A stretch of DNA of 64,000 bases, from positions 124,001 to 188,000 of the forward strand of contig BJHK01000007.1 in assembly GCA_014192425.1 (NCBI GenBank), read 5' to 3'. The DNA comes from Planctomycetia bacterium. GTDB taxonomy: Bacteria; Planctomycetota; Planctomycetia; Pirellulales; UBA1268. The notes beneath the pieces are model-generated. The model saw only the letters and a program-made list of their open reading frames with translations. It had not been told where the DNA came from and searched no databases. Below, one piece after another: positions 6,239 through 48,094 of the stretch; position 1 is the stretch's first letter; each line of letters begins with the position of its first letter. A program made the position numbers and the translations under genes.

Positions 6239-6291
6239 GGCGGCCGGTGCTCGAGGAGATGCTCGAAGATGCGAAGGAGACCGCTTCGAAA

Positions 6292-6348: not shown

Positions 6349-6353
6349 GGGTT

Positions 6354-22224: not shown

Positions 22225-23694
<1,470 letters not shown>

Positions 23695-24532: not shown

Positions 24533-26298
24533 TGTGGCACCGGCCCGGCCAACCGCGTGACGGTGTCCCAGAAGCCCCCCCCCCTCTCGTCGATGTAGCG
24601 GTCGGGGTACTTGATGATCTCGGCGCCTGTGCTGATCTCGAACCCGCCCAGCACGATCTTCGATGCCTCGGCCATGATCCCGCGGGCCCGAGCCACCACC
24701 TCATCAACCGAGTCCGCCGGCCCCTCTATGACCACCGCATCATGAACAGGGGCGCACAGGCCAATCCCGGCTTCGACGAGCATGCAGCAAGCCAGCCGAA
24801 GCATCTCGGCACCATGGGCCTGGCAAGGGAAGTTCGCCAGGCTCCGGGCGTTGGCCCCCTTCAGGGGGTCGGCCGAGGGCCCGACGTGGATCGGCCACCC
24901 GAACACGGTCTCCAGCCGCCCGAGCAGCATCGCCCTGTCTACCGCTGCCTGCGACCACATCCAGAACGCGCGATAGGTCTCACGGTGCAGCCGGAGGAGC
25001 CGCTTGGCCATGTCGACCGGCTGGCCGATCCGATCCGCCAGCGCCTCCGCGCCCATGCCGTATTGCACAGCCAGCACGCACGCCTTGAAGAGCTCCCGTT
25101 CTCCCTTGTGCGACGTCTTTGTGCCCTCCGGCGGAATCCCGCCTGCCTGTTTGCCGAACGCGAGGTAGGGGTCCCCCGAGCGGTAGGCGTCCATCATCGC
25201 CGTGTCACCGGAGAGCGCCGCCGCTATACCAAACTCTTGCTGGTCATAGTCGATGTAGGCGACCGCCATACCTGGCTCCGGTTTGATCAGGCTCCGCAGC
25301 CAACGCGACGGCCCGAAGATGAACTTGGCGTTGCTCGGCTGGTTGCGGCCCGTCCTCGCACGGAAAGGCATGATCCCGGTGCGGTTCCTGCCGTCGGGAC
25401 CAATCGCAAGGTCATCGAACAGCCGCATCTTGCCCAGCGCCGACCGCAGTTCCCGCAATTCCGCGACGACGGGGTACGCCTTCGCCATGGAGCGGAACGT
25501 GTCGTCATCCATTGCGAGCTGGCCGCTCTCCAGCCGCGGCCACGGGATGTCGTGGGCGATGAGCCAGTCCGCGAACTTCTCCCGCTTGAATGTCGTGCCG
25601 TCGAAAACGCCATACCGGGCGTCCACCTCCACCACGAGCGCCGCCTGGATCTCCTGCCAGCGGGCCCGCAGGTGTTCGAACATTGGCACATCGATCGGGA
25701 TGCCGCGGTGCTCCATGCTCGCCACCGCCCAACCGTACCGGCCGCGGAGTAGCGCCCGCGGCAGGTCGATCCGGGTCAGCATTCGCGGCAGCAGGCGTTC
25801 AAGCGCGTACACGTCCTCGGCGCAGTAGTCGAGCAAAGCCTGCCGCTCGTCGGCAGTGAACGGGCCGCCGCGAATGGCGAGGTCTCGCATCGCCGTCTTC
25901 TCGGTGCCCTCCATCGCCGGCAAACCGTGGTAGACGAGCGCCCCGAGCAGGCCGGCGCCGCTCGGCGTCTTCAGGCCGTTCGTCATCGCCCGAAACTCGA
26001 CGAACAGGTCGAGGATCCGTGCGGGCGCCGGCCACCCCAGGGCGTGGAACACACTGAACTCGGCCGGCGCGGCGTACGACACGAACAGCACCCGATCGTC
26101 GATCCGGAAGGGCGGCACTGCCGCGGCGGCAAGTTCGTCCTCCCACAGCCGCAGTTCGCGGCCGGTGAAGGCCTCCTTTGCGACCAGGCAGATCGGCACC
26201 GGCCGGCATCCCGGCTGCGCGGAATACTCGGCATCGACGAGCCAGACCTCGTCGAAGGCTTCGAGGCCGGAGAGGTTGAAGGTCGTGAATGCGGTCAT
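24523..26298 (-). CDS. Family-A DNA polymerase with 3'-5' exonuclease domain
   Basis: A 591-residue phage-like Pol I. The DEDDy exonuclease ligands are visible: D22 and E24 in VDAEY, and Y158/D162 in YCAED. The polymerase domain has motif A in IDYDQQEFG near residue 350, motif B RELFKACVLAVQYG near 406 and motif C VHDAV near 517. In motif C the usual HDE Glu is Ala. No 5'-3' exonuclease domain is present. The ATG at 26298 follows the stop of the upstream gene by two bases. It probably copies the element or fills gaps during its transfer. Confidence 0.88.
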   Translation of the reverse strand: MTAFTTFNLSGLEAFDEVWLVDAEYSAQPGCRPVPICLVAKEAFTGRELRLWEDELAAAAVPPFRIDDRVLFVSYAAPAEFSVFHALGWPAPARILDLFVEFRAMTNGLKTPSGAGLLGALVYHGLPAMEGTEKTAMRDLAIRGGPFTADERQALLDYCAEDVYALERLLPRMLTRIDLPRALLRGRYGWAVASMEHRGIPIDVPMFEHLRARWQEIQAALVVEVDARYGVFDGTTFKREKFADWLIAHDIPWPRLESGQLAMDDDTFRSMAKAYPVVAELRELRSALGKMRLFDDLAIGPDGRNRTGIMPFRARTGRNQPSNAKFIFGPSRWLRSLIKPEPGMAVAYIDYDQQEFGIAAALSGDTAMMDAYRSGDPYLAFGKQAGGIPPEGTKTSHKGERELFKACVLAVQYGMGAEALADRIGQPVDMAKRLLRLHRETYRAFWMWSQAAVDRAMLLGRLETVFGWPIHVGPSADPLKGANARSLANFPCQAHGAEMLRLACCMLVEAGIGLCAPVHDAVVIEGPADSVDEVVARARGIMAEASKIVLGGFEISTGAEIIKYPDRYIDERGGGFWDTVTRLAGPVPHPQ

Positions 26299-26300
26299 GG

Positions 26301-26792
26301 TCAGTTCCAATTCGGGACGAGGGGGTGGTCTTCGGACGCAATGAGCCGGCCGCGGAAGGCGGCGTGGAGAACATCCAGGAAGTCGTCAGCCGGCCAGGTG
26401 GGCGGCGGCGGCGCGTCGTCATCCTTCAAGGTGGATACGACGTATTGCCCGGCCGCCTCGTCCGCCACGACGCGGCACCACCGCATTTCGGCGAGGCTGG
26501 CGAGCACCCCGGCGGTTTCCCGCCAGGGTGCCGAGCCGCCGCGACCGGGGGTGGGTGTCGGCACCGGCCACACGAACATCTCGCCGTCGTGGTTGACGCA
26601 CAGCCGCGGGCAGACCATCGTGAGCCTGTCTGCCAACCGCGGCCACAACTGCCCGACGACGAGGTACAGTTCGCCCGATGACGGGTCCCGCAACACCGGC
26701 GTGTTGAACCGGCTCTCCGGCCCCGGCTTCACCTGGATCCATTCGTCAGCCTGCGGGTTGCGGCAAACGATCGGCGGCAGCGTCGTGCTCAT
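26301..26792 (-). CDS. Hypothetical island protein, paralogue of its upstream neighbour
   Basis: A 163-residue protein with no recognised domain. It matches the C-terminal two thirds of the next gene upstream: WIQVKPG aligns with WFQVRPG, LYLVVGQLWP with TYLVAPSLWA, CVNHDGEMFVWPV with CVNRANDLFIWRV, MRWCRVVAD with TTWCRMVSD, and FRGRLIASEDHPLV with FRGRMIDSLDHPIL. The two genes overlap by four bases. They lie directly before the polymerase, so a role in element replication is possible. Confidence 0.7.
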   Translation of the reverse strand: MSTTLPPIVCRNPQADEWIQVKPGPESRFNTPVLRDPSSGELYLVVGQLWPRLADRLTMVCPRLCVNHDGEMFVWPVPTPTPGRGGSAPWRETAGVLASLAEMRWCRVVADEAAGQYVVSTLKDDDAPPPPTWPADDFLDVLHAAFRGRLIASEDHPLVPNWN

Positions 26793-29788: not shown

Positions 29789-29864
29789 CCAGCATCTTTT
29801 TTGGAAGGCGTATTTTCTCCGCGAAATAAAGCGTTTCCGATGCTGGCCGGCGGGTTTGCCGGCC
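29789..29864. promoter_or_regulatory. Control region before the BREX operon
   Basis: CCAGCATC at 29789-29796 and its inverted copy at 29839-29846 frame an AT-rich 42-base stretch. A hairpin GGCCGGC/GCCGGCC follows at 29845-29864. It lies between divergent genes, 80-150 bases before the first BREX gene. The layout fits an operator over a promoter, but I see no good -35/-10 pair. Confidence 0.4.
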
Positions 29865-29941
29865 AAATGCACAACCCCCTTGCGAGGCCCCCTTCCGCGC
29901 TGGCACATTGGTCCCCAATCCACCCCCTTGGGGAGCCGCCT

Positions 29942-30805
29942 GTGCAGGCCACCACCGCTCTACCGTTCTTCCCGCAGCGCATCGCGATCGACATCAAGGT
30001 CGGCCCGAAGCCGCGCGCCTACCGCGACGTAGACGGCGTCGGCTTCCGCCGCGGCGACGTCGGCACGCACACCAGCCGCACGATCATGCTCGCCGAACTC
30101 ACGGCGCTCTTCGACGCCGTGCCGGCCACCGCGAGCGAGGCCGACATCACCGTCGCCATTCGCCATGCCAACTGCTTGAGCAAGTCGACCACCTCCACGC
30201 GGCGGCTCACCCACCAGCGGCTCACTGAACTCTACGCCCTCGATCCTCACGTGCCGATCTACCGCGTCCTGCGGCGGCTCTGGTCGCTCGAGCCATCGGG
30301 CCGACCGCTGCTCGCGCTGCTCGTCGCCATCGCCCGCGACCCGATGCTCGCCGCCAGCGCTCCCGCGGTCGTGCTGCTACCAATCGGCGCCGACTTCGCT
30401 CGCGGCCCCATGAAGGACGCGATCCGGGCAGCCATCGGCGACCGACTCAGCGACGCCATCCTCGACAAGGTCGTTCGCAACGCCGCCAGCTCGTGGACGC
30501 AGTCGGGCCACCTCGCAGGCCGTTCGATCAAGACGCGACGCCGCGTCATCGCGACGCCGGCCACGGTAGCGCTCGCGGTCTACCTCGCCCACGCGGCCGG
30601 CTTCCGCGGCCCGCATGTGTTCGCGAGCGCCTGGACGAAGCTCCTCGACGCCGACGCTGACGCGGCTCGCAGCCTGGCGATCGAGGCCAAGCGGGCCGGG
30701 CTCATCGACATGCGTGCGTTCGGCGACGTGGTGGACGCGTCCTTCGACCGCCTCGACCCGGGCCTGCCCGCCGCCAGCACGACCACCTCGGAAGGAGTCG
30801 CCTGA
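29942..30805 (+). CDS. First gene of the BREX operon (brxA position)
   Basis: A 287-residue protein at the place of brxA in type-1 BREX. The GTG at 29942 has GGGGAG six bases upstream. The sequence is mostly helical, with the conserved-looking segments RTIMLAELTALFDAVP, VPIYRVLRRLW, GRPLLALLVAIARDP and ASSWTQSGHLAG. DUF1819 BrxA proteins are usually nearer 200 residues, and I do not see a clear match, so it may be a divergent BrxA or a class-specific replacement. It is 14 bases before brxB. Confidence 0.65.
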   Translation: MQATTALPFFPQRIAIDIKVGPKPRAYRDVDGVGFRRGDVGTHTSRTIMLAELTALFDAVPATASEADITVAIRHANCLSKSTTSTRRLTHQRLTELYALDPHVPIYRVLRRLWSLEPSGRPLLALLVAIARDPMLAASAPAVVLLPIGADFARGPMKDAIRAAIGDRLSDAILDKVVRNAASSWTQSGHLAGRSIKTRRRVIATPATVALAVYLAHAAGFRGPHVFASAWTKLLDADADAARSLAIEAKRAGLIDMRAFGDVVDASFDRLDPGLPAASTTTSEGVA

Positions 30806-30819
30806 CGGCGTAGTCACCC

Positions 30820-31383
30820 ATGGGCCGCATCGAAGAACTCTCCGAGCACTACGCCAAGCACGTCTCCCTGCCCTGGGAACGGGGCGTCGCCGGCGCCCAG
30901 CGCGTGATCATGGTCGTCTACGACAAGGAGGCCGAGCGGATGCTCCGGGCCCGCCGGCAGCTCTTCGCCACCGCCACTGAGGCCGCCGGCCACGGCTGGC
31001 ACGTAGTCGACCTCTCCGACGCCTTCGCCGCCTGGATCGCGGCCGACGATTTTCGGGACGCCTACTTCGAGTCGCCCGAGGATCTGGAACTCAAGCTCCA
31101 GACCGAGTTCGTGGACGTCCTGGCCGCCAAGGTCCGCGAGGCCCTCACCGCCGCCGAGGTCACCGACAACTCCGTCGTCGCCCTGTTTGGCGTCGGCAGC
31201 CTGTTCGGATTCGCCCGCGTCTCGCAGATCGTCCGGGCCATCGAGCGTGACGTCCGCGGCCGCCTCGTGATCTTTTTCCCGGGCCACTTCGAGCAGAACA
31301 ACTACCGGCTCCTCGACGCCCGCGACGGCTGGAACTACCTCGCCGTCCCCATCACCCACGCCGGCAACCAGCACGCCCAGTAG
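30820..31383 (+). CDS. brxB: BREX protein BrxB (DUF1788)
   Basis: A 187-residue DUF1788 protein. The family hallmarks are RVIMVVYDKEAERMLRARR near the start and the end region GRLVIFFPGHFEQNNYRLLDARDGWNYLAVP. BrxB is required for type-1 BREX defence, and its biochemical role is unknown. It lies 14 bases after the first gene and 21 before brxC. Confidence 0.9.
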   Translation: MGRIEELSEHYAKHVSLPWERGVAGAQRVIMVVYDKEAERMLRARRQLFATATEAAGHGWHVVDLSDAFAAWIAADDFRDAYFESPEDLELKLQTEFVDVLAAKVREALTAAEVTDNSVVALFGVGSLFGFARVSQIVRAIERDVRGRLVIFFPGHFEQNNYRLLDARDGWNYLAVPITHAGNQHAQ

Positions 31384-31404
31384 CACCACCACCAGAGGTC
31401 CGCC

Positions 31405-34400
31405 ATGAGCATGGCCACCATCAAAGACATCCTCCTCATCGACCCGTCCCGGGAGCCGCTGGTCAACAACGGCCAAGCCCGCCTCGCGGACCAGACCGAC
31501 GAGAAGGTCGTCGCCGAGCTGCGCGGCGAGCTGAAGATGTTCGTCTGCGAGGGTGAGTTCGCCCGCGGCCTCGACTGCATCCTCTCGGAGTACCTCGGCA
31601 ACCTCGGCAACTCGTCGCAGAAGGCCGTCTGGGTCAGCGGCTTCTTCGGCAGCGGCAAAAGCCACCTCCTCAAGATGCTCGCCCACCTCTGGGCCGACAC
31701 GCCCTTCGCCGACGGCGCCACGGCCCGCGGGATCGTGCCCGAGATGCCGAAGGAGATCCGGGCCCACTTCACCGAACTCGACAACGCCGGCCGCCGCCAT
31801 GGCGGACTGTTCTCCGCCGCCGGCACGCTCCTGGCCGGCTCCCACGACCGCGTCCGCGAGACGGTCCTCGGCGTGATCCTGCGTGCCGCCGGGCTGCCGG
31901 AGCAGTATCCCGTCGCCCGGTTCGTCCTCTGGCTCGAGCGGGAAGGGGCTCTCGACAAGGTGAAGAAGCACGTCGAGGCCAACGGCGGCGTGTGGGAGAA
32001 GGAACTCGCGAACCTCTGGGTGAGCACGCGGATCCGCAAGGCGATTCTGGCGTGGGACAAGAACTTCGCCCCCAGCGAGGCCGACGTTCGGGCGGCGCTC
32101 AAGCAGCAGTTCCAGGAGCAGACCGGCGACCTGACCACGCCGGAGTTCATCGGCCTGGCCAAGGACGTCCTCCTCCGCCACGCCGCCAACACCTCCAACA
32201 ACCCCGAGCAGCTGCCCTGCACCATCATCCTGCTCGACGAGGCCCAGCAATACATCGGCGACTCGCACGACCGCTCGACGGTCTTCACCGAGTTGGCAGA
32301 GGCGCTCACCAAGCAGTTCGACGGCCGCATGCTGCTCGTGGCCGCCGGACAGCAGTCGCTCAACGACGTCGAACTGCTCCACAAGCTGATGGACCGGTTC
32401 GTCGTGAAGGTGCCGCTCTCCGACACCGACGTCGAGACGGTCACCCGCAAGGTGTCGCTCCGCAAGAAGCCCGGCGCGATCCCCACCGTCACGAGCACCG
32501 TCGAGTCCCACGGCGGCGAAATCGCCCGCCACCTTCAGGGCACGAAGATCGGGCCGCGCACGAGCGACGACAAGACGATCGTGGCCGACTACCCGCTCCT
32601 GCCGGTCCGCCGTCGGTTCTGGGAGGAGTGCTTTCGTCAGATCGACGCCGCCGGAACGAAGAGCCAACTGCGGTCGCAGCTCTCGATCATCCACGACGCC
32701 GTCGGCAAGCTCGCCGACGACCGGCTCACGGCCGTCATCCCGGCCGACGCCCTCTACGACTCGCTCAAGGCCTACATGCTCGGCACGGGCGTTCTCCTGC
32801 GGGAGATCCACGAACGGATCGAGGAGCTGGGCGTGCCGGGCACCACCGACGCCGTTCTCGCCAAGCGGATCGCCAGCCTCGTGTTCCTGATCTCGAAGCT
32901 GCCCACCAACCTCGGGGCCGATCTCGGCGTCCGCGCGTCCGCCGCCCACATCGCCGACCTGCTCGTCAGCGATCTGGCCGCCGACAACCACGTCCTGCGG
33001 CAGAAGGTCGCCGAGTCGCTCGAAAAACTCGTCGAGAGCGGCCTGCTCATGAAGGTGGACGACGAATACCGGATGCAGACGCGGGCCGGATCGGAGTGGC
33101 TGGCCACCTACAACAAGAAGCAGCAAGAGATCCGCGGCAGCGAGCCGAAGATCCAGGAGGTCCGCAACAACCTCGTCTATGCCGCCATCGACGAGGCCGT
33201 CCGCGGGGTGCGCATCCTCCAAGGCCTGCCGAAGGAGCCACGCGACCTGTCGGTAGACCGCGACGCCACGCCGCCCACCCCCGGCGGTCGCGGCCTAACC
33301 GTCTGGGTCCGCGACGGCTGGTCCGCTGCCGAGAAGGATGTGACGGCGGCTGCCCGGAAAGCCGGAGCCTCGTCATCGCTCATCTACTCGTTCATTCCCA
33401 AGGCCTACGCCGACGACCTCAAAACCGCGATCGTCAACTCCGAGGCCGCCAACAGCACGCTCGAAACCTACGGCCCGCAGTCCGAGGCCGAGGGCCAGGA
33501 GGCGATGCGGGCGATGACGAGCCTGCGGGATAGCGCCATCAACAACCGCGACCGGCTGATCCGCGACATCGTCAGCGGCACGAAGGTCTGGCTCGGCGGC
33601 GGCACCGAACAGCTCCACACCACGCTCGCCGAGAAGCTGAAAGTCGCCGCCGAGGCTGCTGTCGCCCGCCAGTTCAAGGATTTTTCCGCGGCCGACAAGG
33701 CGTCGTGGGACGTCGTGATGAAGCGGGCGAAGGAGGGCACCGACAAGCCAATGGAGCCGATCGGGCATACGGGCGCGGTCGAGACCCACGCCGTCTGCGT
33801 CGAGGTGCTCGGCCGCACGGCCACGGGCGCGACGGGCAGCGAAGTCCGCTCACAGCTCCAAGACCCACCCTTCGGCTGGCCGAAGGACGCAATCGATGGC
33901 GTGCTCGTCGTACTCGTGGGCGCCGGGCACCTGTCGGCCAAGCTCAACAACGCGCCCATAGCCGCGGCCCAACTCGACCAGAACAAGATCACAAAGACGA
34001 TCTTCACGCGCGAAACGAAGACCATCTCGATGGCCGACCGGCTCAAGGTTCGCGGCACGCTCGCAAAACTCGGCTTCAAGCCCAAAGGCAACGATGAGGA
34101 CGGTCCGCTTGCCGCCGACTTCCTGAAGAAACTCGCCGAAATAGGGCGGCATACCGGTGGCGAGGAGCCGCTGCCGCCGCACAAGTCGGTGGTGTTCATC
34201 GAAGACATCCAGCGGCTCACCGGCGTCGAGATGCTCGCCGAGATGGTCGCCAAGAAGGCCGACCTCGATACCGCCGCCGATGTGTGGCCCGCGCTTGCCA
34301 CGCTCGCCGAAACCCGCCTCGCCGCCTGGGACGAACTCCACAAGCTCTTCGACCACGCCAAGAACGAGCCGGGCGCTGCCACCATCAACGCCGACATCGA

Positions 34401-34890
34401 GGCTGTCCGCACCGGCCGCCTGCTCCTCGATTCGTCCGACCCGCTGCCGCCGATCCGCGCCAAGATCGCCGAGATCCTCCGCAAGCGGCTCAAGGACACC
34501 TTCGACGACCACAAGGCCACCTTCGACCGCGAGGTGGCGCAGCTCACCGCCACACCCGTCTGGGGCCAGCTCCCGGCCGACAAGCAGACGGCCATCCTCG
34601 CCGATATCGGCCTCCGCGAGCCTGACGCCGTGGACGTCTCCACCGACGCGACCATTGCCGCTGCCCTCGCCGAACGGTCGATCGACGCCCGCCGCAACGC
34701 CGCCCTCGCCGTGCCCACGCTCGCTGGCCAGGCCCTCCGCAAGGCCGCGGCCACCGTCGAGCCCCAGGCCCGCAGCGTCACGGTCGAGAAGACCACGCTC
34801 CGCAACGGCGACGACGTCCGCGAGTGGGCCAAGCGGGCCGAGAGCCAGCTGCTCGAGGAAGTGAAGAAGGGCCCCGTGCTCGTCTCGTAA
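31405..34890 (+). CDS. brxC: BREX P-loop ATPase BrxC
   Basis: A 1161-residue AAA-like ATPase of BREX (earlier PglY). Walker A GFFGSGKSHLLK is at about residues 79-90, and Walker B IILLDEAQQ is near 275-280, followed by the long C-terminal helical region normal for BrxC. It interacts with the methylation/defence complex. It is encoded between brxB and pglX with small gaps, and the codon use is uniformly GC-rich. Confidence 0.92.
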   Translation: MSMATIKDILLIDPSREPLVNNGQARLADQTDEKVVAELRGELKMFVCEGEFARGLDCILSEYLGNLGNSSQKAVWVSGFFGSGKSHLLKMLAHLWADTPFADGATARGIVPEMPKEIRAHFTELDNAGRRHGGLFSAAGTLLAGSHDRVRETVLGVILRAAGLPEQYPVARFVLWLEREGALDKVKKHVEANGGVWEKELANLWVSTRIRKAILAWDKNFAPSEADVRAALKQQFQEQTGDLTTPEFIGLAKDVLLRHAANTSNNPEQLPCTIILLDEAQQYIGDSHDRSTVFTELAEALTKQFDGRMLLVAAGQQSLNDVELLHKLMDRFVVKVPLSDTDVETVTRKVSLRKKPGAIPTVTSTVESHGGEIARHLQGTKIGPRTSDDKTIVADYPLLPVRRRFWEECFRQIDAAGTKSQLRSQLSIIHDAVGKLADDRLTAVIPADALYDSLKAYMLGTGVLLREIHERIEELGVPGTTDAVLAKRIASLVFLISKLPTNLGADLGVRASAAHIADLLVSDLAADNHVLRQKVAESLEKLVESGLLMKVDDEYRMQTRAGSEWLATYNKKQQEIRGSEPKIQEVRNNLVYAAIDEAVRGVRILQGLPKEPRDLSVDRDATPPTPGGRGLTVWVRDGWSAAEKDVTAAARKAGASSSLIYSFIPKAYADDLKTAIVNSEAANSTLETYGPQSEAEGQEAMRAMTSLRDSAINNRDRLIRDIVSGTKVWLGGGTEQLHTTLAEKLKVAAEAAVARQFKDFSAADKASWDVVMKRAKEGTDKPMEPIGHTGAVETHAVCVEVLGRTATGATGSEVRSQLQDPPFGWPKDAIDGVLVVLVGAGHLSAKLNNAPIAAAQLDQNKITKTIFTRETKTISMADRLKVRGTLAKLGFKPKGNDEDGPLAADFLKKLAEIGRHTGGEEPLPPHKSVVFIEDIQRLTGVEMLAEMVAKKADLDTAADVWPALATLAETRLAAWDELHKLFDHAKNEPGAATINADIEAVRTGRLLLDSSDPLPPIRAKIAEILRKRLKDTFDDHKATFDREVAQLTATPVWGQLPADKQTAILADIGLREPDAVDVSTDATIAAALAERSIDARRNAALAVPTLAGQALRKAAATVEPQARSVTVEKTTLRNGDDVREWAKRAESQLLEEVKKGPVLVS

Positions 34891-34905
34891 CAAGCGCCAT
34901 CATCC

Positions 34906-37900
34906 ATGCCACCACTCGATCGCACGCTCCGCCGGGGCCTCGAAAACGCCGTGAAGGCTGCCCGCCGGGTGGCCGAACAGGCCGCAACGAAGGCGCTCGA
35001 ATCGCTCGCCGTCGGCCACCACGAACCGTGGCCGGGCCAGCCGACCGCCGACCGCACGCTCCGCGTCAAACTCCGCGCCCGCGGCCGGCAACTCGGCGAC
35101 GCCCTCGATCCCAAAACAGGAAAACAAGCCACCACGCGGCTCGTCCACGAGGTCGCCTACGAGCACTGGCACCGGATGCTCTTCGCGCGGTTCCTCGCCG
35201 AGAACGACCTGCTCATCGAACCCGACTCCGGCGTCGCCATCAGCCTCGACACCTGCCGCGAACTGGCGAAGGAACGCGGCACCGACGTCTGGATGCTCGC
35301 CAGCCGATTCGCCCAGACGATGCTGCCCGAGATCTTTCGGGCCGACGATCCCGTGCTCGCCGTGGAACTGGCCCGCGAGGACCAGCTTGAACTGGAGAAG
35401 ATCGTCGCCGACCTCGGCACCGACGTCTTCACGGCGTCCGACTCGCTCGGCTGGTGCTACCAGTTCTGGCAGGCGGAGAAGAAAGATTCCGTGAACGCCT
35501 CGGGCGTGAAGATCGGCGCCGACGAGCTGCCCGCCGTCACGCAGCTCTTCACCGAGGACTACATGGTGGATTTCCTGCTCGACAACACGCTCGGCGCGTG
35601 GTGGGCCGGGAAAGTGCTCGCGGCCGATCCGTCGATCGCCGCGTCAGCCACGAGCGAAGACGACCTCCGCAAGGCCGTGTCGCTGCCGGGCGTACCGTGG
35701 GCCTACCTGCGGTTCATCAAGCCTGACGACGGCGAAGGCGCGGGCACGTGGCGACCGGCCGCGGGCACGTTCGACGGCTGGCCACGCGCCGTCAAGGATC
35801 TCACCTGCCTCGACCCCTGCATGGGCAGCGGCCATTTTGTTGTCGCGATGTTCGACCGGCTCGTTCCGCTGCGGATGCGCGAAGAGGGCCTGAGCGAGAC
35901 GGCGGCGATCAAGGCCGTCATCCGCGACAACCTCTATGGGTTGGAGATCGACCCCCGCTGCACGCAGATCGGCGCCTTCAACCTCGCCCTCGCAGCCTGG
36001 CGGCGGGTCGGCCACATCCCCCTGCCGCCCATGCACATCGCTTGCTCCGGCCTCGCGCCAAACGCCACCGAGGACGAATGGGTGGCGCTAGCCGAGGGTA
36101 ACTCGCGGCTCGAAGAAGGTATGCGGCGGCTCCACGGGCTGTTCAAGGACGCCCCGGTGCTCGGCAGCCTCATCAACCCAGGGGCCGAAGGCTACGCGGC
36201 GTTCGAGGCGTCATTCGCCGAGTTGCAGCCGATTCTGGGGAAGGCGCTCGCGAAGGAAGGCAGCGACGACGCCGAGCACGAGATGGCGGTGACGGCCCGC
36301 GGCGTGGCGAAGGCGGCGGAGATTCTTGGGCGACAGTTCACGCTCGTGGCGACGAACGTGCCGTATCTGGCGAAAGACAAGCACGCGCCGCTGCTCGCTT
36401 CTCGTTGTGAATCGAGATTCCCGGCGGCCCAGCGCAATCTGGCGTACGTATTTCTGCAATGCGGACTGGAAATCGCCCGCGCGGGAGGGACCGTTGCCAT
36501 GGTCACTCTTCAAAACTGGTTGTTTCAACCGGCATATCCCGAGCTGCGGAAAGCGATATTGAGCCAAAGCGACTGGAATCAAGTCGTCCGGTTGGGGGCG
36601 AAAGGATTCCAAACGCCGATGTGGGACTTCAACGTGATGCTTTTCATCACATCAAAGTCGCTCCCGACTGACTCATCCTGTCTCCCATCACTCAATGTTG
36701 AAGGCGCTCGATCCCCGGAAGAGAAGGCTCGGTCATTGGTCACCACACAAGTGACCACGTCGAACCAGCTCGGGCAAATGCGAAATACTGACTGCATCGT
36801 GCTGGAGGATCTGACGCGGTCCGCCATGACGACGCTTGGTGACTACATGACGACGGCCCAAGGCCTTGTCACTGGCGATGACAACAAATTTGTCAGGCGA
36901 TGGTGGGAATCGCCGCTCCTTAGCGATGAGTGGACTTGGTTGCACCTTCAGCCTCGAAACACGGAACCGTATTCCGGGCGTGTAGCCACAATCCGGTGGC
37001 AAGGCGGATCGGGTGATCTGCACAAGCGATCCAAGGCTCACAACTTTCCACCTCCTGAGTTCTTGGGGGCGGCAGGTGTCGCCATCCAAAGGATGGATCT
37101 CAATGCGACAATTTTCTCTGGCAATGTTTTCGGTGACCACCTAGCGCCCCTCGTACCACGAGATGTATCGACGCTTCTTCCCTTGTGGTGTTTCTGCGAG
37201 TCAGCCGATTTTACAGCCGAAGTTCGCAAAGTAGACGCGGCGCTAAAGGTGGCGGTGGGCTCTTTCGCCAAGGTGCCATTCGATCTTCCTCACTGGGAAA
37301 CAGTTGCCGCCGAACGTTACCCGGCAGGCATGCCAGTTCCACACACCTCCGACCCCACCCAGTGGCTCTTCAACGGCCACCCGAAGGACTCCGACAGCCC
37401 GCTCCACGTCGCCGTCGCCCGGCTCGTCGGCTACCAGTGGCCGCGGCAGACGGGCTCGGAGTTTCCCGACTGCCCGGCGCTCGGCGCCGACGGTCTCGAA
37501 CGGCACGCCGACGCCGACGGGATCGTCTGCCTGTCGAGCGTCCGCGGTGAGCCAACGGCGGCGGATCGGCTCCTCTCCCTGCTGGCCGACGCCTACGGCT
37601 CCGACTGGTCGGCTGACCTCCGCGACAAGCTGCTCGCCGACGTGGACGCCAATGGAAAAACCCTCGACGACTGGCTCCGCGACTCGTTTTTCGAGCAGCA
37701 CCTGAAGCTGTTCCACCAGCGGCCTTTCGTCTGGCACATCTGGGACGGCCTCCGCGACGGGTTTCATTGCCTCGTCAACTACCACCGGCTCGCGGGCCCC
37801 GATGGGCAAGGCCGCCGCACGCTCGAAAAGATCGCGTACGAATACCTCGGCGACTGGATCACCCGGCAGAAGGCGCAGCAGGCGGCCGGCGAGGAAGGCG

Positions 37901-38352
37901 CCGACGCCCGTGTGGCCGCCGCCGTTCACCTCCAAGAACAGCTCGCCAAGATCATCGAGGGCGAGCCGCCGTTCGACATTTTTGTGCGTTGGAAGCCGCT
38001 CGCGGAACAGCCGATCGGCTGGGATCCCGACATCAACGACGGCGTGCGGCTCAATATCCGCCCGTTCATGACCGCCCGACCGCTCGGGGCGAAGGCCAAG
38101 AAGGCGTGCATCCTCCGCGCGGCCCCCGGCATCAAGTGGGACAAGGACCGCGGCAACGAGCCCGACCGCCCCAAGGACCAGTTCCCATGGTTCTGGACGT
38201 GGGATGAGGAATCGCAGGATTTCCTGGGCGGCACGAAGTTCGACGGCAAGCGACACAACGACCTCCACTACACCCGTAGGGCGAAGGAAGCTGCGCGGGC
38301 GAAGGCGGGCGGCACGAGCACGAAGCCCAAGGCTGCAGAGGCCCGGGCATGA
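34906..38352 (+). CDS. pglX: BREX adenine-specific DNA methyltransferase PglX
   Basis: PglX methylates the host BREX motif at adenine N6 to mark self DNA and sets the specificity of the system. It has 1148 residues. SAM motif I DPCMGSGHF starts at residue 303, and motif IV is TNVPYL with N484-V-P-Y487 instead of N-P-P-Y. The helical N-terminal part and a C-terminal domain are normal. From about 36380 to 37330 the DNA drops from roughly 70% to about 50-57% GC in sampled lines, with T/A-ending codons, just where the target-recognition region should lie. It overlaps pglZ by four bases. Confidence 0.92.
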   Translation: MPPLDRTLRRGLENAVKAARRVAEQAATKALESLAVGHHEPWPGQPTADRTLRVKLRARGRQLGDALDPKTGKQATTRLVHEVAYEHWHRMLFARFLAENDLLIEPDSGVAISLDTCRELAKERGTDVWMLASRFAQTMLPEIFRADDPVLAVELAREDQLELEKIVADLGTDVFTASDSLGWCYQFWQAEKKDSVNASGVKIGADELPAVTQLFTEDYMVDFLLDNTLGAWWAGKVLAADPSIAASATSEDDLRKAVSLPGVPWAYLRFIKPDDGEGAGTWRPAAGTFDGWPRAVKDLTCLDPCMGSGHFVVAMFDRLVPLRMREEGLSETAAIKAVIRDNLYGLEIDPRCTQIGAFNLALAAWRRVGHIPLPPMHIACSGLAPNATEDEWVALAEGNSRLEEGMRRLHGLFKDAPVLGSLINPGAEGYAAFEASFAELQPILGKALAKEGSDDAEHEMAVTARGVAKAAEILGRQFTLVATNVPYLAKDKHAPLLASRCESRFPAAQRNLAYVFLQCGLEIARAGGTVAMVTLQNWLFQPAYPELRKAILSQSDWNQVVRLGAKGFQTPMWDFNVMLFITSKSLPTDSSCLPSLNVEGARSPEEKARSLVTTQVTTSNQLGQMRNTDCIVLEDLTRSAMTTLGDYMTTAQGLVTGDDNKFVRRWWESPLLSDEWTWLHLQPRNTEPYSGRVATIRWQGGSGDLHKRSKAHNFPPPEFLGAAGVAIQRMDLNATIFSGNVFGDHLAPLVPRDVSTLLPLWCFCESADFTAEVRKVDAALKVAVGSFAKVPFDLPHWETVAAERYPAGMPVPHTSDPTQWLFNGHPKDSDSPLHVAVARLVGYQWPRQTGSEFPDCPALGADGLERHADADGIVCLSSVRGEPTAADRLLSLLADAYGSDWSADLRDKLLADVDANGKTLDDWLRDSFFEQHLKLFHQRPFVWHIWDGLRDGFHCLVNYHRLAGPDGQGRRTLEKIAYEYLGDWITRQKAQQAAGEEGADARVAAAVHLQEQLAKIIEGEPPFDIFVRWKPLAEQPIGWDPDINDGVRLNIRPFMTARPLGAKAKKACILRAAPGIKWDKDRGNEPDRPKDQFPWFWTWDEESQDFLGGTKFDGKRHNDLHYTRRAKEAARAKAGGTSTKPKAAEARA

Positions 38353-40727
38353 GCACGGCCACCTCCACATCTCCGACGCTCACCACTAGCACGCTCGCCG
38401 ATGCCGTGCTCGAATCACTCGCGCGGCTCGTCTCCACGCCCGACGGTGAGGTGCCGCCCGCCGCGATCCTCTGGCCCGACGCCGAGGGCCAGTGGAAGAG
38501 CCTCGTCGCGCTGCTGCGGGGCCGCGTGCCGCACCTCTACGAACTCGGCACCTTCTCCCCCGACGACCACATCGGCCCGGCGATCTGGCTCGTCTGCGCC
38601 GTCGCTCGCACGCTCTCCGACCATTCGCCGCCCGCGGGCACTGTCCCGATCCTCTACCTGCCCGGCGTCGCTCGGCAGGAACTCCGTGCCGGTGCCGACT
38701 GCCCCATGCTCCACCAGCCGCTCGTGGAACTCCAGTATCGCGGGAAGGTGTGGCACCAACGCAACGGCCGCGACTGGACGATCGAGGCGTTCCTGACGAG
38801 CAAAGACGCCCTCGACCTCGACGTGGCCCGCGATGCCGCCAGCCAGCAGGCGATGCTCCGCGCGATCGACCGGCTCGCCGATGAGCCGATCGCGGCGCTC
38901 ACCGGGAGGCGGCTCGACGTCGGCTTCTTCGAGTCGCTCTCCGTCAGCGACATCGAACGTGAAATCCTCGCCTGGATGGCCGACGCCGACGAGTATCGGA
39001 AGACCAAGAAGGCCGACGCTGCCGCGTTCGAGACGTTCGTCGGCAAGATGGCCCGCGAATACGGTGTCGATCCAACCAAGCAGTCGCCCGCCGAAGCCGC
39101 GAAGTGCCTGGCCCGCGGAGAAACGGCGTGGGATCCGATCTGGCGCCGCTATGCCGACGCCCCGCAGGCGTATCCCAAGATGCAGGTGCTCATGGCCGCG
39201 GTGCCGGAGCAGGAGTTTTCGATTCAGTGCCTCGACCGCAGCCCACGCAGCAATCTGCAGTCGGAATCAACGCTCCGCTCGGACCTCGGGAAACTGCTCT
39301 CGCTCCCGCATGCCGACACCTGTGCCGCCGTCACCAAGCTCGATCGTGAACACCGCGAGCGGCTCGACCGTCCGTGGACCAAACTCGGCGAGAGCCTGCT
39401 CGCCGAAGTGCTCGTGCCGCTCGCGAAGTTGGCGACCGCCGCGACTTCACCGCTCGGCGGGCCCGACGTGGCGACAATCGCCCGGGCCTACGCCAAGGGC
39501 GGCTGGGACGTGGACCGGCAGGCGATGCGGGCGCTGGCCGTCGCCCAACACTCCGCCGACGCCGAACTCGTCGGTCAGGTTGTGCGGGCGGTCTACCTGC
39601 CGTGGCTCGACAAGACGGCGGCGCATTTCCTATCGGTAAGCCAGGGCGGCGCCGCGATCGCCTCACTCGTCACTGCCGTGCAGCCGGAACGGGAGCAGTG
39701 CCTCGTATTCGCCGATGGCTTGCGGTTCGACGTCGCCGTGTCCCTCCAGGAAAAGCTCGAGGCCCGTGGGCTCGTGGCTCGGCTCGGCCACCGGATCGCC
39801 CCGCTGCCGAGCGTGACCGCCACGGCCAAGCCCGCGGTGATGCCCCTGCCGGCCAGCGGCTACGGTTCGATCGTGGGCGGCCAGATGCCCGAGACGTTCC
39901 TGCCGCAGGTGCGGACGGCCGCGGGCCAGAAACCTGCCACCACGAATGAACTCCACGACGTGCTCTCCGAGCTGCGCGTCGCCGTCCTCGCCGCCGACGA
40001 GACCTCCGACGCCGCCACCGCCGAGAAGGGCGGCTGGACGGAGGTGGGGCGGATCGACGAACTGGGCCACAAGCTCGGCGCGGAACTCGCCGGCTCCCTC
40101 GACGAACAGGTGGAGCGGATCGCCCGCCGCGTGGCCGACCTGCTCGACGCGGGCTGGACGCGGGTGCGGGTCGTCACCGACCACGGCTGGCTACTCGTGC
40201 CCGGCGGCCTTACGAAGGTCGAAGTCCCGAAGTCGGTCGTCGAATCGAAGTGGTCCCGCGCTGCCGCAGTAAAAGGCTCGTCGCAGGTGACGGTGCCGGT
40301 CGTGGGATGGCACTGGAACGATGCCGACCGCGTGGCCACACCACCGGGGGCTGGTGCGTTTCGGGCGAGCGAGGCCTACGCACACGGCGGCATGAGCCCG
40401 CAGGAGTGCGTGACGCCGGAACTCATCGTTGAGCGGCTCAGGCCCGCGGAGACGACCTCGATCACGAACATCCGCTGGGTCGGAATGCGGTGCCGCGTGT
40501 CCGTGGGTGGCGGCGTCTCTCCACTCTTCGTGGACCTGCGCACTACCGACCGCGACCCAGCCTCGACCGTCGTCGGCGGCCTGAAGCCCTACGACGCCAA
40601 GAAAGACGAGGCCGCGATGGTCGTGGCCGACGACAGCCTCGAATCGAAACCCGCCGTCGTGGTCGTGCTCAACGCCGACGGCACCGTCCTTGATCGCATG
40701 AAGACCACCATTGGAGGCAAGACATGA
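38349..40727 (+). CDS. pglZ: BREX phosphatase-like protein PglZ (type B-like)
   Basis: A 792-residue alkaline-phosphatase-superfamily protein of BREX. Metal-ligand-like motifs are ADGLRFD (D456) and VVTDHGWLLVPGG (D611, H612). The long N-terminal helical part (residues 1-430) and the shorter length compared with classical type A PglZ suggest the type B form. It overlaps pglX and brxL by ATGA on each side, so the three are co-translated. Confidence 0.9.
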   Translation: MSTATSTSPTLTTSTLADAVLESLARLVSTPDGEVPPAAILWPDAEGQWKSLVALLRGRVPHLYELGTFSPDDHIGPAIWLVCAVARTLSDHSPPAGTVPILYLPGVARQELRAGADCPMLHQPLVELQYRGKVWHQRNGRDWTIEAFLTSKDALDLDVARDAASQQAMLRAIDRLADEPIAALTGRRLDVGFFESLSVSDIEREILAWMADADEYRKTKKADAAAFETFVGKMAREYGVDPTKQSPAEAAKCLARGETAWDPIWRRYADAPQAYPKMQVLMAAVPEQEFSIQCLDRSPRSNLQSESTLRSDLGKLLSLPHADTCAAVTKLDREHRERLDRPWTKLGESLLAEVLVPLAKLATAATSPLGGPDVATIARAYAKGGWDVDRQAMRALAVAQHSADAELVGQVVRAVYLPWLDKTAAHFLSVSQGGAAIASLVTAVQPEREQCLVFADGLRFDVAVSLQEKLEARGLVARLGHRIAPLPSVTATAKPAVMPLPASGYGSIVGGQMPETFLPQVRTAAGQKPATTNELHDVLSELRVAVLAADETSDAATAEKGGWTEVGRIDELGHKLGAELAGSLDEQVERIARRVADLLDAGWTRVRVVTDHGWLLVPGGLTKVEVPKSVVESKWSRAAAVKGSSQVTVPVVGWHWNDADRVATPPGAGAFRASEAYAHGGMSPQECVTPELIVERLRPAETTSITNIRWVGMRCRVSVGGGVSPLFVDLRTTDRDPASTVVGGLKPYDAKKDEAAMVVADDSLESKPAVVVVLNADGTVLDRMKTTIGGKT

Positions 40728-42778
40728 CGCTCGTGCTCGACCGACTCGATGAAGTGGCCTCGAGCGCCTTCGACGGCTACCTCGTCCGCAAGGACCTCGT
40801 GCGGAGGTACGCCAAGGAATACCCCGTGCCCAGCTACGTCGTGGAGTTTCTGCTGGGCCGGTACTGCGCCACGACCGACCCCGAGGAGATCGAGCAGGGT
40901 CTGGGAATCGTCACCCAGCAGCTCGCCGACCGCACCGTCCGCACGGGCAACGAGGAACTCTTCAAGAGCCGCGCCAAGGAGCAGCGGCAGGTAAAACTCA
41001 TCGACATCGTGCGGGCCCGGCTCGACGCCAAGAACGACTGCTACGTGGCCGAGTTGCCGAGCCTGGCCCTGCGTGACGTGCGGATCCCCGACGATCTTGT
41101 CCGCGACAACGAGCGAATGCTCACCGACGGGTTCTACGCCGAGGTGACGCTCGCCTACGACAGCGTGATCGCATCGCAGCAGGGCGGCCGGGCGTTCGGC
41201 ATCGAGGCCATGCGGCCGATCCAGATGTCGAAGTCGGACGTGCTCGAGGCCCTGCAGCGCGGCCGTCGCACGTTCTCGACCGAGGAGTGGAAGAAGTTCC
41301 TGATTCGCTCGATCGGGCTGGAGCCAGACGCGCTCGACGAAAAGGCGATCCGTGTGCTGCTCCTGCGGATGGTGCCCTTCGTGGAGCGGAACTACAACCT
41401 CGTCGAACTCGGCCCCCGCGGCACCGGCAAGAGCCATCTCTTCCAGCAGATCTCTCCCTACGCCCACCTGATCTCGGGCGGCAAGGCGTCGGTGGCCAAG
41501 ATGTTCGTCAACAACGCCACCGGCCAGAAGGGCCTGGTCTGCCAGTACGACGTCGTCTGCTTCGACGAGGTGTCTGGCATCTCCTTCGACCAGAAGGACG
41601 GCGTCAACATCATGAAGGGCTACATGGCCAGCGGGCAGTTCAGCCGCGGCAAAGAGAACATCCGGGCTGACGGCGGCATCGTGATGGTCGGCAACTTCGA
41701 CGTGGATGTAGACCAGCAGCAGCGGATCGGGCACCTGCTCAGCCCGCTACCGCCGGAGATGCGGTCCGACACGGCGTTCATGGACCGGCTGCATGCCTTC
41801 GCGGCGGGCTGGGATTTCCCGAAACTCAAGCCCACCGACCACCTGACGAACCACTTCGGCCTTGTGAGCGACTTCCTGAGCGAATGTTGGAGCCACCTGC
41901 GGACGACGAGCCGGGCGACGGTGATGTACGAGCGGGTCCACCTCGGCGGCGCTCTTTCGGGCCGCGACATCGAGGCGGTGAGCAAGACGGTGAGCGGCCT
42001 GACGAAGCTGCTCTTCCCCGATCCCGAGATGCCGGTGCCGGACGAGGACCTGGAGTGGATGGTGCGGCTGGCGCTCGAATCCCGCCGACGGGTGAAGGAG
42101 CAACAGAAGCGGCTTCTCAAGAGCGAGTTCCGCAACACCCACTTCAGCTACGTCATGGGCGCCGAGGGCGTGGAGCAGTTCGTGGCCACGCCGGAGTTGC
42201 ACAGCGACGAGGCGATCGAAAGCGACCCGTTGCCGCCGGGGCAGGTCTGGGCGGTGAGCCCGGGCGGCCCCGATTCCGAGCCGGGCCTCTACCGGATCGA
42301 GGTGACGGTAGGTCCTGGGAGCACGGTGCGGATCCTGAACCAACCGGTCCCGGCCGGATTCCGTGAGAGCGTGCGGATCGGTGAGCAGAACCTGTACACG
42401 CGGGCGAAGGAGCTGGTGGGAGACCGGGACCCCCGCGCCCACGAGTTCTCGCTCCAACTGCGGGCGATGGACGCCGACAAGAACGGCGCCGGACTGGGCC
42501 TTCCGGTGCTCGTGGCGATGTGCAGCGCCCTCCTCGGCCGCAACACCCGCGGCGGCACGATCCTGATCGGCCCTTTGAACCTGGGCGGCTCGTTCGAGTT
42601 GATCCCCAACGCCCAGCGGATCGCGGAGCTGGCGGTCGACAAGCAGGCCGGCACGGTGCTGATGCCGGTCGCCGCCCGGCGGCAGTTGGCCGACCTGCCG
42701 GACGACGTTTGGACCCGGCTGAACATCGAGTTCTACAAGGACGCCGCCGACGCGGTGTTCAAAGCCTTGGTGGAGTAG
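40724..42778 (+). CDS. brxL: BREX Lon-like AAA protein BrxL
   Basis: A 684-residue AAA+ protein that forms ring complexes on DNA. Walker A GPRGTGKSHLF is at residues 230-240, and the Walker B-like VVCFDEVSG follows near 285. The C-terminal Lon-protease-like domain (residues about 500-684) has the fold landmarks LRAMDADKNGAGLGLPVLVAM and GPLNLGGSFEL, but the catalytic Ser (normally in GPSAG) and the Lys after GG are missing. A proteolytic role is therefore unlikely; the domain is probably structural. Confidence 0.92.
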   Translation: MTLVLDRLDEVASSAFDGYLVRKDLVRRYAKEYPVPSYVVEFLLGRYCATTDPEEIEQGLGIVTQQLADRTVRTGNEELFKSRAKEQRQVKLIDIVRARLDAKNDCYVAELPSLALRDVRIPDDLVRDNERMLTDGFYAEVTLAYDSVIASQQGGRAFGIEAMRPIQMSKSDVLEALQRGRRTFSTEEWKKFLIRSIGLEPDALDEKAIRVLLLRMVPFVERNYNLVELGPRGTGKSHLFQQISPYAHLISGGKASVAKMFVNNATGQKGLVCQYDVVCFDEVSGISFDQKDGVNIMKGYMASGQFSRGKENIRADGGIVMVGNFDVDVDQQQRIGHLLSPLPPEMRSDTAFMDRLHAFAAGWDFPKLKPTDHLTNHFGLVSDFLSECWSHLRTTSRATVMYERVHLGGALSGRDIEAVSKTVSGLTKLLFPDPEMPVPDEDLEWMVRLALESRRRVKEQQKRLLKSEFRNTHFSYVMGAEGVEQFVATPELHSDEAIESDPLPPGQVWAVSPGGPDSEPGLYRIEVTVGPGSTVRILNQPVPAGFRESVRIGEQNLYTRAKELVGDRDPRAHEFSLQLRAMDADKNGAGLGLPVLVAMCSALLGRNTRGGTILIGPLNLGGSFELIPNAQRIAELAVDKQAGTVLMPVAARRQLADLPDDVWTRLNIEFYKDAADAVFKALVE

Positions 42779-42788
42779 GGAGGCCGCC

Positions 42789-44573
42789 GTGCAAATCGAC
42801 CCCATGGTGTCGCTCGCCCATGCGATTCACAGCCGGCCGCGGCGTTACGCGCTGCTGCTGGGATCGGGCGTGTCCAGGGCGGCAGGGATTCCCACCGGCT
42901 GGGAGATACTCGGCGAACTCATCGCGCGGGTGCGGAGCCTCGAAGGTGCGGATGGCGACGACGACAACGTGAAGTGGTTTACGAAGCGTTTCGGTGAGGC
43001 CCCAGACTACTCACGGGTTGTCGAGCGGCTGGGTCAGACTGAGTGGGAACGTCAAGAGATGCTTCGCGGGTTTTTCGAACCCGCTGCCGATGGCCGGGGA
43101 GCACACGACAGGAAGCCAACCGCTGCCCACCGAGCGATCGCCCGCCTCGTGAAGGGTGACTTCGTCCAAGTCATCGTGACGACGAACTTCGATCGACTAG
43201 TGGAGACGGCTTTGGTCGATGAGGGAATCCACCCGAAGGTCATCTCCTCCGAACACCAAGTCGACGGGATCGTGTCATTGGTTCACGAGAAGGTCGTCGT
43301 CTTCAAGCTTAACGGCGACTACCGGGACCCATCCATCCGAAACACCGCCGGCGAGTTGAGCAAGTATGACCCAGAAACCACACTATTTCTGAACCACATC
43401 TGCGAGTCTTACGGCCTCGTCGTGTGCGGGTGGTCGGGAGAATGGGATCTCGCTCTTCGCGTGGCTTTGGAGGCGACCAAGGCGAGGCGATTCTCGATGT
43501 TCTGGGCGAGTCGTCGCGAACCAGTGGGCCACGCCCTTTCTCTCGTGCGCACGCGAGAAGCGGAAGTCGTTCTGGGGATGGATGCCGACACGTTCTTTGA
43601 TGACCTAGCCGGCAAGGTCCTCTCGCTTCAGGAAGCAGCCACCGCACATCCGAGGTCGCTTCAGATTCTTGCAGCGGAGTCCCGCCGACTCGTCCGCGTC
43701 GGGGAGGACGTGCCCCAGCTTCAGAGAACTGTACAGGCGGTTGTCGAGCGAGCCAGGGCGGCACTGGTCGAAGCGGTCCGCGTCGAGGCGCCCAAGCCTC
43801 TGCCCGCGACCGCGGACTGGATCAACTTTTCGAATCGCCAGTTGGGCGAGGTATACGCGGTGTGTATGCCGGCGGCGCGCTGGGCCGTCGGAAGGCAAGT
43901 TCCGATCCTACAGGAGGTTGTCCAGCGACTACATGAAGGCCCTGCGGTTCCGTCGAATCACGTCGTGCCTGAGGAATCGTACTGGGCAGTGCCGTCGTTT
44001 CTGGCGTTTCATATGATCGGCGCGACGATGGCGGCAGGTCGTAACTGGCCGGCGCTGTTTGAGTTTGTCGCCGGGGCGCGGGTCAAAACCAGGAATGGCT
44101 TCTCGCCGTACGTAGTCGGTCTGGATTGGGGACACGTTCAGAATCATTTCGCTGAAGCGTTCGGCTCCAGCGGGCGTGGGCCGGCCGCGAGCCGATGGCT
44201 CTTCGATCAATGGAATGCCGTTGGCACTGGCGAGGTGCCGAGCGTCCAAGATCGCGACGAAGCCTTCCTTCGGTTTGAGCTGGCTATCGCGATCACGCAC
44301 CGCGCTTTGACGGTGCCACCATCGGGCATGAACGATCGGAAGGGTGTGTACATCCGCGACGATACGCCCCCTTGGATGCTGTCAGGACTCTACAATTGGA
44401 GAGCATCGTGGGGGGGAGGTGAGCGACAATTTGTGGACGAGCTACAGGAAGACCAGAGGTTCACCCTTGCCCTCCAGGAGTTCGTTTCGTCCCTGAGAGA
44501 GCCGGTGAGCGTGCAGTCGCTCTACGACTACCTTCAGTCTTGGCTTCAGCGCACCCGGCAGGGAGCTGGATGA
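42789..44573 (+). CDS. SIR2-like domain protein appended to the BREX operon
   Basis: A 594-residue protein with an N-terminal SIR2-like NAD-binding fold: LLLGSGVSRAAGIPT at residues 22-36, the TTNFD motif at 131-135, then FKLNGDYRD around 172-180, where the usual catalytic His of KLHGD is replaced by Asn175, and VCGWSGEWDLALR. The C-terminal 320 residues have no recognised domain. The GTG start at 42789 has GGAG nearby and lies 10 bases after brxL, so it is in the operon. Codon use is less GC-rich than in BREX, suggesting a later acquisition. Probably an abortive defence effector or a regulator. Confidence 0.8.
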   Translation: MQIDPMVSLAHAIHSRPRRYALLLGSGVSRAAGIPTGWEILGELIARVRSLEGADGDDDNVKWFTKRFGEAPDYSRVVERLGQTEWERQEMLRGFFEPAADGRGAHDRKPTAAHRAIARLVKGDFVQVIVTTNFDRLVETALVDEGIHPKVISSEHQVDGIVSLVHEKVVVFKLNGDYRDPSIRNTAGELSKYDPETTLFLNHICESYGLVVCGWSGEWDLALRVALEATKARRFSMFWASRREPVGHALSLVRTREAEVVLGMDADTFFDDLAGKVLSLQEAATAHPRSLQILAAESRRLVRVGEDVPQLQRTVQAVVERARAALVEAVRVEAPKPLPATADWINFSNRQLGEVYAVCMPAARWAVGRQVPILQEVVQRLHEGPAVPSNHVVPEESYWAVPSFLAFHMIGATMAAGRNWPALFEFVAGARVKTRNGFSPYVVGLDWGHVQNHFAEAFGSSGRGPAASRWLFDQWNAVGTGEVPSVQDRDEAFLRFELAIAITHRALTVPPSGMNDRKGVYIRDDTPPWMLSGLYNWRASWGGGERQFVDELQEDQRFTLALQEFVSSLREPVSVQSLYDYLQSWLQRTRQGAG

Positions 44574-46842: not shown

Positions 46843-47280
46843 ATGGCCAAAGCCAAGCACACCGAGCCCGAGCCCGTCCCCGACCCGTCCGTCCAAGAAC
46901 TCCTCGCTGGTTACTTCCGGGCTGAAGAAGCCCGGCTCGAGACAGCGAAGGCGAAGCTCAAGCGTGAGATCATCCCCCGCCTCAAGAAGTGGGGCGTCGC
47001 CAAGGTGAAGTGTGAGTATTCGGGCTACGGCGACTCCGGCTGCATCAACCACATCGCCTACCTGGACGCCCACGACCAGCCCGTGAACATGGACCTGGTC
47101 CGGTCAGCCAGCGATCCCGAGATCGAACGAGTGCTCTACCAATTCCTTCCCGACGGCTTCGAGATCAACGAGGGTGGCCAGGGTGATGTCACGATCGACG
47201 TCGCGGCTGGCACCGTGAAGCTCGAGCACCAGGAGAACTACACCGAGACCCGTGACAACACCCGGGAGTTCGACCTGTAA
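46843..47280 (+). CDS. DUF6878-like protein
   Basis: A 145-residue protein with the segment YSGYGDSGCI followed later by LPDGFEINEGGQGDVTIDV, the GxGDSG ... WEINEGGxG pattern I associate with DUF6878. A charged coiled helix (residues 25-50) opens the protein. It follows the DUF2997 gene by 129 bases and overlaps the next gene by one base. Confidence 0.7.
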   Translation: MAKAKHTEPEPVPDPSVQELLAGYFRAEEARLETAKAKLKREIIPRLKKWGVAKVKCEYSGYGDSGCINHIAYLDAHDQPVNMDLVRSASDPEIERVLYQFLPDGFEINEGGQGDVTIDVAAGTVKLEHQENYTETRDNTREFDL

Positions 47281-47627: not shown

Positions 47628-47628
47628 T

Positions 47629-48042: not shown

Positions 48043-48094
48043 GGACGCACCCCACGTTCTTGTGTTGAATCTCGAAGCCGCTAACAGGATACCC

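What the first reader, a model, noticed from the sequence alone, without database searches (positions are those of the whole stretch)
36380..37330. pglX contains a lower-GC segment at the expected target-recognition region
Hand counts give 43/60 GC in line 35581 but 34/60 in line 36661 and 28/60 in line 37081; the codons change from C/G-ending to mixed, then revert to GC-rich at about 37330. The frame stays open. This is the signature of a swapped recognition domain, which would change the BREX methylation motif between strains.
Basis: partly seen in the sequence, partly recalled or inferred. Interest (0 to 1): 0.65.

Follow-up and report, generated by a model that had tools for sequence, protein, structure and literature searches.

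The report
Swappable DNA-recognition cassette in BREX methyltransferase
The gene that tells this bacterium's BREX anti-phage system which DNA sequence to mark has had its recognition middle section replaced, as its relatives do routinely; the lower GC content of that section is real but is shared by all 80 relatives checked, so GC content alone does not prove the swap.

Summary
Confirmed and extended. pglX (34906-38352, 1148 aa) lies in a complete Type I BREX operon. Its third-codon-position GC falls from 0.87 to 0.60 over codons 498-812 (36397-37341), the strongest such mosaic among 41 window genes. The segment covers nearly everything after catalytic motif IV: the distal methyltransferase half plus the whole target-recognition domain (TRD). 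The closest full-length relative (L005) is 79-90% identical in flank blocks and 17-41% in the centre. Four-fold synonymous sites match in 67% of flank sites but 29% of centre sites, the level of unrelated genes, which points to replacement. Among 81 homologues, flank and centre identities are decoupled (r=0.20). One pair shares the centre (83%) while its flanks are 61%, and flank and centre trees conflict in other members. So this is an exchangeable specificity cassette. It is a family property, only partly explained by import. TRD exchange is a known kind of event in restriction enzymes. The motif-IV boundary and universal dip appear undescribed in the papers I could search. Motif change between strains was not testable here.

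The parts
34906..38352 (+). pglX (brxX): BREX site-specific adenine methyltransferase and specificity protein, 1148 aa
   Evidence: PADLOC PDLC02528 PglX, 1477 bits over residues 2-1135; model pLDDT 88.9, best PDB matches Salmonella PglX 8c45 (Z 31.8) and E. coli BrxX 9ewz (Z 30.5)
36397..37341 (+). low-GC3 segment = exchangeable specificity cassette, codons 498-812
   Evidence: GC3 0.60 against 0.87 outside; identity to L005 falls to 17-41%
34906..36372 (+). conserved N-terminal flank: helical domain and the methyltransferase core up to motif IV (residues 1-489)
   Evidence: 84-90% identity to L005
35812..35835 (+). motif I, DPCMGSGH (residues 303-310), SAM binding
   Evidence: conserved columns; GxG motif role from PMC11341690
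36355..36366 (+). motif IV, NVPY (residues 484-487); upstream junction of the cassette lies just after it
   Evidence: close-pair identity 0.96 at residues 483-488, 0.55 at 489-494 and 0.43 at 495-500
36373..36783 (+). distal half of the methyltransferase domain (about residues 490-626), part of the cassette
   Evidence: profile alignment to E. coli BrxX with MTD/TRD border at 650/651 (PMC11842806)
36784..37290 (+). target-recognition domain proper (about residues 627-795)
   Evidence: profile alignment to E. coli BrxX TRD 651-837; structural match
37342..38349 (+). conserved C-terminal flank (residues 813-1148)
   Evidence: 79-86% identity to L005
29801..30805 (+). brxA (true start uncertain; the match begins at residue 75)
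   Evidence: PADLOC BrxA 297 bits
30820..31383 (+). brxB
   Evidence: Pfam BrxB and PADLOC BrxB
31405..34890 (+). brxC
   Evidence: PADLOC BrxC 1286 bits
38349..40727 (+). pglZ
   Evidence: PADLOC PglZ 823 bits
40724..42778 (+). brxL
   Evidence: Pfam BrxL_ATPase and BrxL_N; PADLOC BrxL 946 bits

Best explanation
The segment is a specificity cassette of a Type I BREX PglX that is exchanged as a unit by recombination in the conserved flanks. One junction lies just after catalytic motif IV and the other at about residues 790-812, at the end of the TRD. Exchange replaces the distal methyltransferase half together with the TRD, so that all base-contacting surfaces move together while the SAM-binding core and the C-terminal BREX-specific domain stay. 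The expected result is a new methylation and restriction site for the same machinery. Shown: the mosaic composition; the conserved-flank and unrelated-centre pattern against L005; random-level synonymous similarity in the centre; cassette sharing and tree conflict in other family members; gene conversion between tandem pglX copies. Inferred: that Q or L005 received its cassette by homologous recombination, that the recognition motif changed, and that the lower GC is partly import and partly weaker long-term GC pressure on a segment with few homologous partners.
For: Flanks 79-90% and centre 17-41% identical to L005, with sharp borders. Four-fold sites identical in 270/404 of flank against 13/45 of centre, p=1e-6; seven further close pairs behave alike or reciprocally. 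In 53 close pairs the centre matches at 0.28 of four-fold sites, against 0.26 for unrelated pairs and 0.61 in flanks. L025/L037: centre 83% aa and 0.59 of four-fold sites, flanks 61% and 0.25. Flank tree rejects the centre clades L013+L031+L038 (p-AU 1.7e-5) and L010+L033 (1e-6); centre tree rejects the flank clade L031+L033+L038 (6e-5). Tandem pglX copies in G240 share a stretch identical at DNA level over most of residues 181-330, but 27-37% in the TRD. Structure places the segment on MTD-distal plus TRD.
Against: The centre-tree test cannot reject Q+L005 as sisters (p-AU 0.59): both branches are very long, so for this particular pair the case rests on divergence level and synonymous sites, not topology. 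No donor was found: the best centre match anywhere is about 36%. The GC dip is family-wide, so it adds little to the case for a swap. Only one relative with >75% flank identity is complete.
Confidence: 0.82

Rival explanations
1. Diversification in place: the centre has diverged rapidly under selection by phages, without exchange between genes.
For: The TRD is the most variable part of BrxX (PMC11842806). Topology does not separate Q from L005 in the centre.
Against: Selection on amino acids does not randomise synonymous sites, yet four-fold sites in the centre are at the unrelated level while flanks are at 0.61-0.67. Shared cassettes on different flanks (L025/L037) and reciprocal tree conflict need exchange, at least elsewhere in the family. 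No reverse transcriptase of a diversity-generating element was recognised; the PADLOC RT-like hit is a DNA polymerase A.
Confidence: 0.1
2. The GC dip is not a mark of import. Variable TRDs drift to lower third-position GC in every host because codon selection or GC-biased conversion is weak there. This rival concerns the dip, and is compatible with the swap.
For: Dip in 81/81 homologues, including AT-rich hosts where random imports should often raise GC. It scales with host GC (slope 0.73, intercept near 0) and vanishes in an AT-rich Ligilactobacillus PglX.
Against: Conservation-matched flank columns show little of it (-0.07 against -0.20). brxC and pglZ of the same operon, only about 36% identical to order-level relatives, show no such segment. 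Centre GC3 is noisier than flank parts (residual sd 0.08-0.10 against 0.05-0.06), and L037's dip is slight (-0.04) in the pair that shares a cassette, as if composition travelled with it.
Confidence: 0.5
3. A phase-variable pglX switched by inversion between expressed and silent copies, as described for some other BREX loci.
For: pglX phase variation is known (discussed in PMC11341690). A tandem pglX pair with gene conversion exists in G240.
Against: One pglX match in the own genome at full length and for the centre alone. No long inverted repeats around the gene; the best are 36 and 26 nt at 81%.
Confidence: 0.03
4. Assembly chimera joining two organisms inside pglX.
For: The genome is an assembly of 70 contigs.
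Against: The frame is open through both junctions, the junctions lie at domain borders, and the same mosaic is seen in 80 independent records.
Confidence: 0.02

Closest known systems
Type I BREX PglX/BrxX of E. coli HS and Salmonella (PDB 9ewz, 8c45; PMC11842806, PMC11341690)
   Same: Gene context, domain order, fold, variable TRD between conserved methyltransferase core and C-terminal domain.
   Different: About 19-20% identity in structural alignment; motif IV is NVPY instead of NPPY; the exchanged unit here starts at motif IV, upstream of the TRD border.
Domain movement of TRDs in Type I HsdS and other methyltransferases (PMC3077401, PMC3983042)
   Same: Recognition modules move between alleles while the rest of the protein stays.
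   Different: Here the methyltransferase and TRD are one polypeptide and the unit includes half of the catalytic domain. No movement between positions within the gene was seen.
Type IIL enzymes MmeI and DrdV (PDB 5hr4, 7lo5)
   Same: Gamma-class methyltransferase followed by TRD; structural match.
   Different: They carry an N-terminal nuclease; PglX has none and has a conserved BREX-specific C-terminal part.

Membership tests
Type I BREX system | brxA, brxB, brxC, pglX, pglZ, brxL in one cluster | tested here: met
   All six found in this order and strand, 29801-42778
Type I BREX system | methylates a 6-bp non-palindromic site and excludes unmethylated phage | not testable with these tools
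   No methylome or phage assay
PglX/BrxX | gamma-class adenine methyltransferase with SAM motif I and catalytic motif IV | tested here: met
   DPCMGSGH and NVPY are conserved in 69 aligned members. Motif IV differs from the canonical NPPY at its second residue throughout; activity not shown
PglX/BrxX | NTD-MTD-TRD-CTD fold of solved BrxX | tested here: met
   Z 31.8 to 8c45 and 30.5 to 9ewz over 944-959 residues
exchangeable TRD (domain movement) systems | same recognition module on different backbones, and different modules on the same backbone | tested here: met
   For the family: L025/L037 and close pairs. For this gene only the second half is met, against L005; no donor found
phase-variable pglX | silent second copy and inverted repeats | tested here: not met
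   Single copy in own genome, no long inverted repeats
Type IIL/IIG restriction enzyme (MmeI-like) | nuclease domain in the same chain | tested here: not met
   Pfam finds only methyltransferase domains

The most novel reading that the evidence does not exclude
In BREX, specificity evolves by trading one standard cassette (motif IV to the end of the TRD) across bacterial phyla. These cassettes form a gene pool with its own, always AT-shifted, codon composition, so that codon composition alone marks the specificity module of a PglX without any alignment.
Probability: 0.4. Interest if true: 0.6.

Novelty: new member of a known kind. Interest (0 to 1): 0.45.

Why it matters
It explains how one BREX machine can acquire new target sites without rebuilding its other parts, and gives exact natural junctions (just after motif IV and at residues 790-812) that could guide domain-swap tests of PglX specificity in laboratory strains. 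It also warns that a GC dip over a recognition domain is not by itself evidence of a recent swap, because the whole family shows it.

Tried and rejected
Donor search for the centre: own genus, plasmids, phages and viral contigs gave nothing above about 36% identity. Full-length pglX in 397 genomes of the class and 60 relatives: no closer complete gene than L005; G002 (same genus) is 94% identical over residues 1-262 and then its contig ends. Tree test of Q+L005 in the centre: inconclusive. Tree test of L025+L037 in flanks: not rejected (p-AU 0.32), so that pair rests on the reversal of distances. Silent copies and inverted repeats: none of note. Amino-acid composition and conservation as full causes of the dip: rejected. 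Four genome searches for the AAA gene failed on the machine's side.

Full report
1. The observation. The statistical optimum on third-position GC is codons 498-812, 36397-37341, GC3 0.60 inside and 0.87 outside. The likelihood gain (97.7) is far above shuffles (maximum 22.6 of 40) and above every other gene in the window. The claimed stretch is the lowest-GC 951 nt in the window.

2. What the gene is. The cluster brxA-brxB-brxC-pglX-pglZ-brxL (29801-42778) is a complete Type I BREX operon. The PglX model (mean pLDDT 88.9) matches Salmonella PglX and E. coli BrxX best (Z 31.8 and 30.5). By profile alignment and the published E. coli domain borders (MTD 211-650, TRD 651-837; PMC11842806), the TRD is about residues 627-795. 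The segment thus starts just after motif IV (NVPY, residues 484-487), covers the distal methyltransferase half and the TRD, and ends where the conserved C-terminal part begins. In E. coli BrxX both TRD and methyltransferase domain contact the site, and the sixth base is read by the closed methyltransferase domain (PMC11842806). In Salmonella PglX a loop at 591-600 in the methyltransferase domain was among the regions chosen for altering specificity (PMC11341690). A unit that carries both surfaces therefore makes mechanistic sense; that is inference.

3. Relatives. A scan of genome contigs gave 80 full or nearly full homologues from many phyla. The nearest, L005, is 79-90% identical by block in the flanks and 17-41% in the centre. 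Its record title says Kuenenia, but the locus GC of 0.67 makes that name doubtful, so I make no claim about its taxon. The drop is abrupt at residue 489 and the recovery is at about 790-812. Where the amino acid is the same, four-fold sites agree in 67% of flank sites and 29% of centre sites (p=1e-6). Unrelated pairs agree in 26% of centre sites. Selection for amino-acid change would not randomise synonymous sites, so an unrelated allele has been brought in on one side or the other.

4. The family. Across 3160 pairs, flank and centre identity correlate at only 0.20. Parts of the flanks correlate with each other at 0.42-0.67 and with the TRD half of the centre at 0.05-0.07; saturation of the centre contributes to this. 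Of 53 close pairs (flanks over 80%), 51 have centres under 55%. The converse also occurs: L025 and L037 have flanks 61% and centre 83% identical, with four-fold sites 0.25 and 0.59. Trees conflict in both directions for other members. For Q and L005 themselves the tree test is inconclusive (p-AU 0.59), because both centres sit on very long branches. In G240 two full pglX genes lie in tandem. They are identical at DNA level over most of residues 181-330 but 27-37% identical in the TRD. This shows that homologous recombination in the flank can homogenise the backbone and leave the centres different.

5. The GC dip. The dip is not special to this gene. After correction for amino-acid content, all 81 genes have lower third-position GC in the centre than their own flanks predict (mean -0.187). 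Without the correction, 46 of 52 GC-rich genes fall by more than 0.1. Distant PglX subfamilies mostly show it too: in 14 of 16 genes with a readable TRD interval, GC3 is below the flank mean. The exceptions are L128, where TRD and flanks are about equal, and the AT-rich Ligilactobacillus gene. One further Acinetobacter gene was cut short and could not be read. Columns of equal conservation in the flanks show little of the dip. Centre GC3 follows host GC3 with slope 0.73 and more scatter than any flank part. I read this as two forces together: cassettes keep some memory of where they came from, and a region with few homologous partners and fast turnover does not hold the host's GC-rich codon choice. 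The data do not separate these.

6. Verdict. The swapped-domain reading is right for this gene with good but not complete evidence. TRD exchange is a known kind of event in restriction-modification enzymes (PMC3077401, PMC3983042), the TRD was already known as the variable part of BrxX (PMC11842806), and divergence inside pglX between E. coli and Salmonella was noted (PMC9009780). In the papers I could search I found no description of the motif-IV junction, of cross-lineage cassette sharing in PglX, or of the family-wide dip. The library lacks most subscription journals, so this is not proof of novelty.

Noticed in passing
47252-49648: AAA ATPase gene (IetA-like by PADLOC) is a second mosaic: residues 1-297 have GC3 about 0.54 and the rest 0.83. 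The best plasmid homologues shown all align only from residue 301 onward, so a variable N-terminus seems joined to a conserved ATPase.
   Followed up: partly
36355-36366: Catalytic motif IV is NVPY rather than NPPY; N484, V485 and P486 are invariant in 69 aligned members. No paper in the library holds 'NVPY' with methyltransferase.
   Followed up: partly
L112 (G240:C1:880500-894500): Two full-length pglX genes in tandem between brxC and pglZ, with a long stretch of identical DNA in the N-terminal part and divergent centres: gene conversion between paralogues.
   Followed up: yes
L114 and L115 (G040): A BREX operon broken inside pglX: residues 1-339 lie on one contig; residues about 330-440 joined to 805-1140, with pglZ and brxL, on another. 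The centre is absent and brxC is split over two frames.
   Followed up: partly
42789-44573: SIR2-domain gene (PADLOC candidate PDC-S65) directly after brxL, possibly an accessory defence gene.
   Followed up: no
24523-26310: PADLOC calls this gene RTasPolA (DRT), but Pfam sees a family A DNA polymerase; a phage-integrase-like gene lies next to it at 22258-23694.
   Followed up: partly
L088: A viral-collection contig (IMG/VR) carries a PglX-like gene (3570-6842) whose centre is 35% identical to the query's; whether the contig is truly viral was not checked.
   Followed up: no
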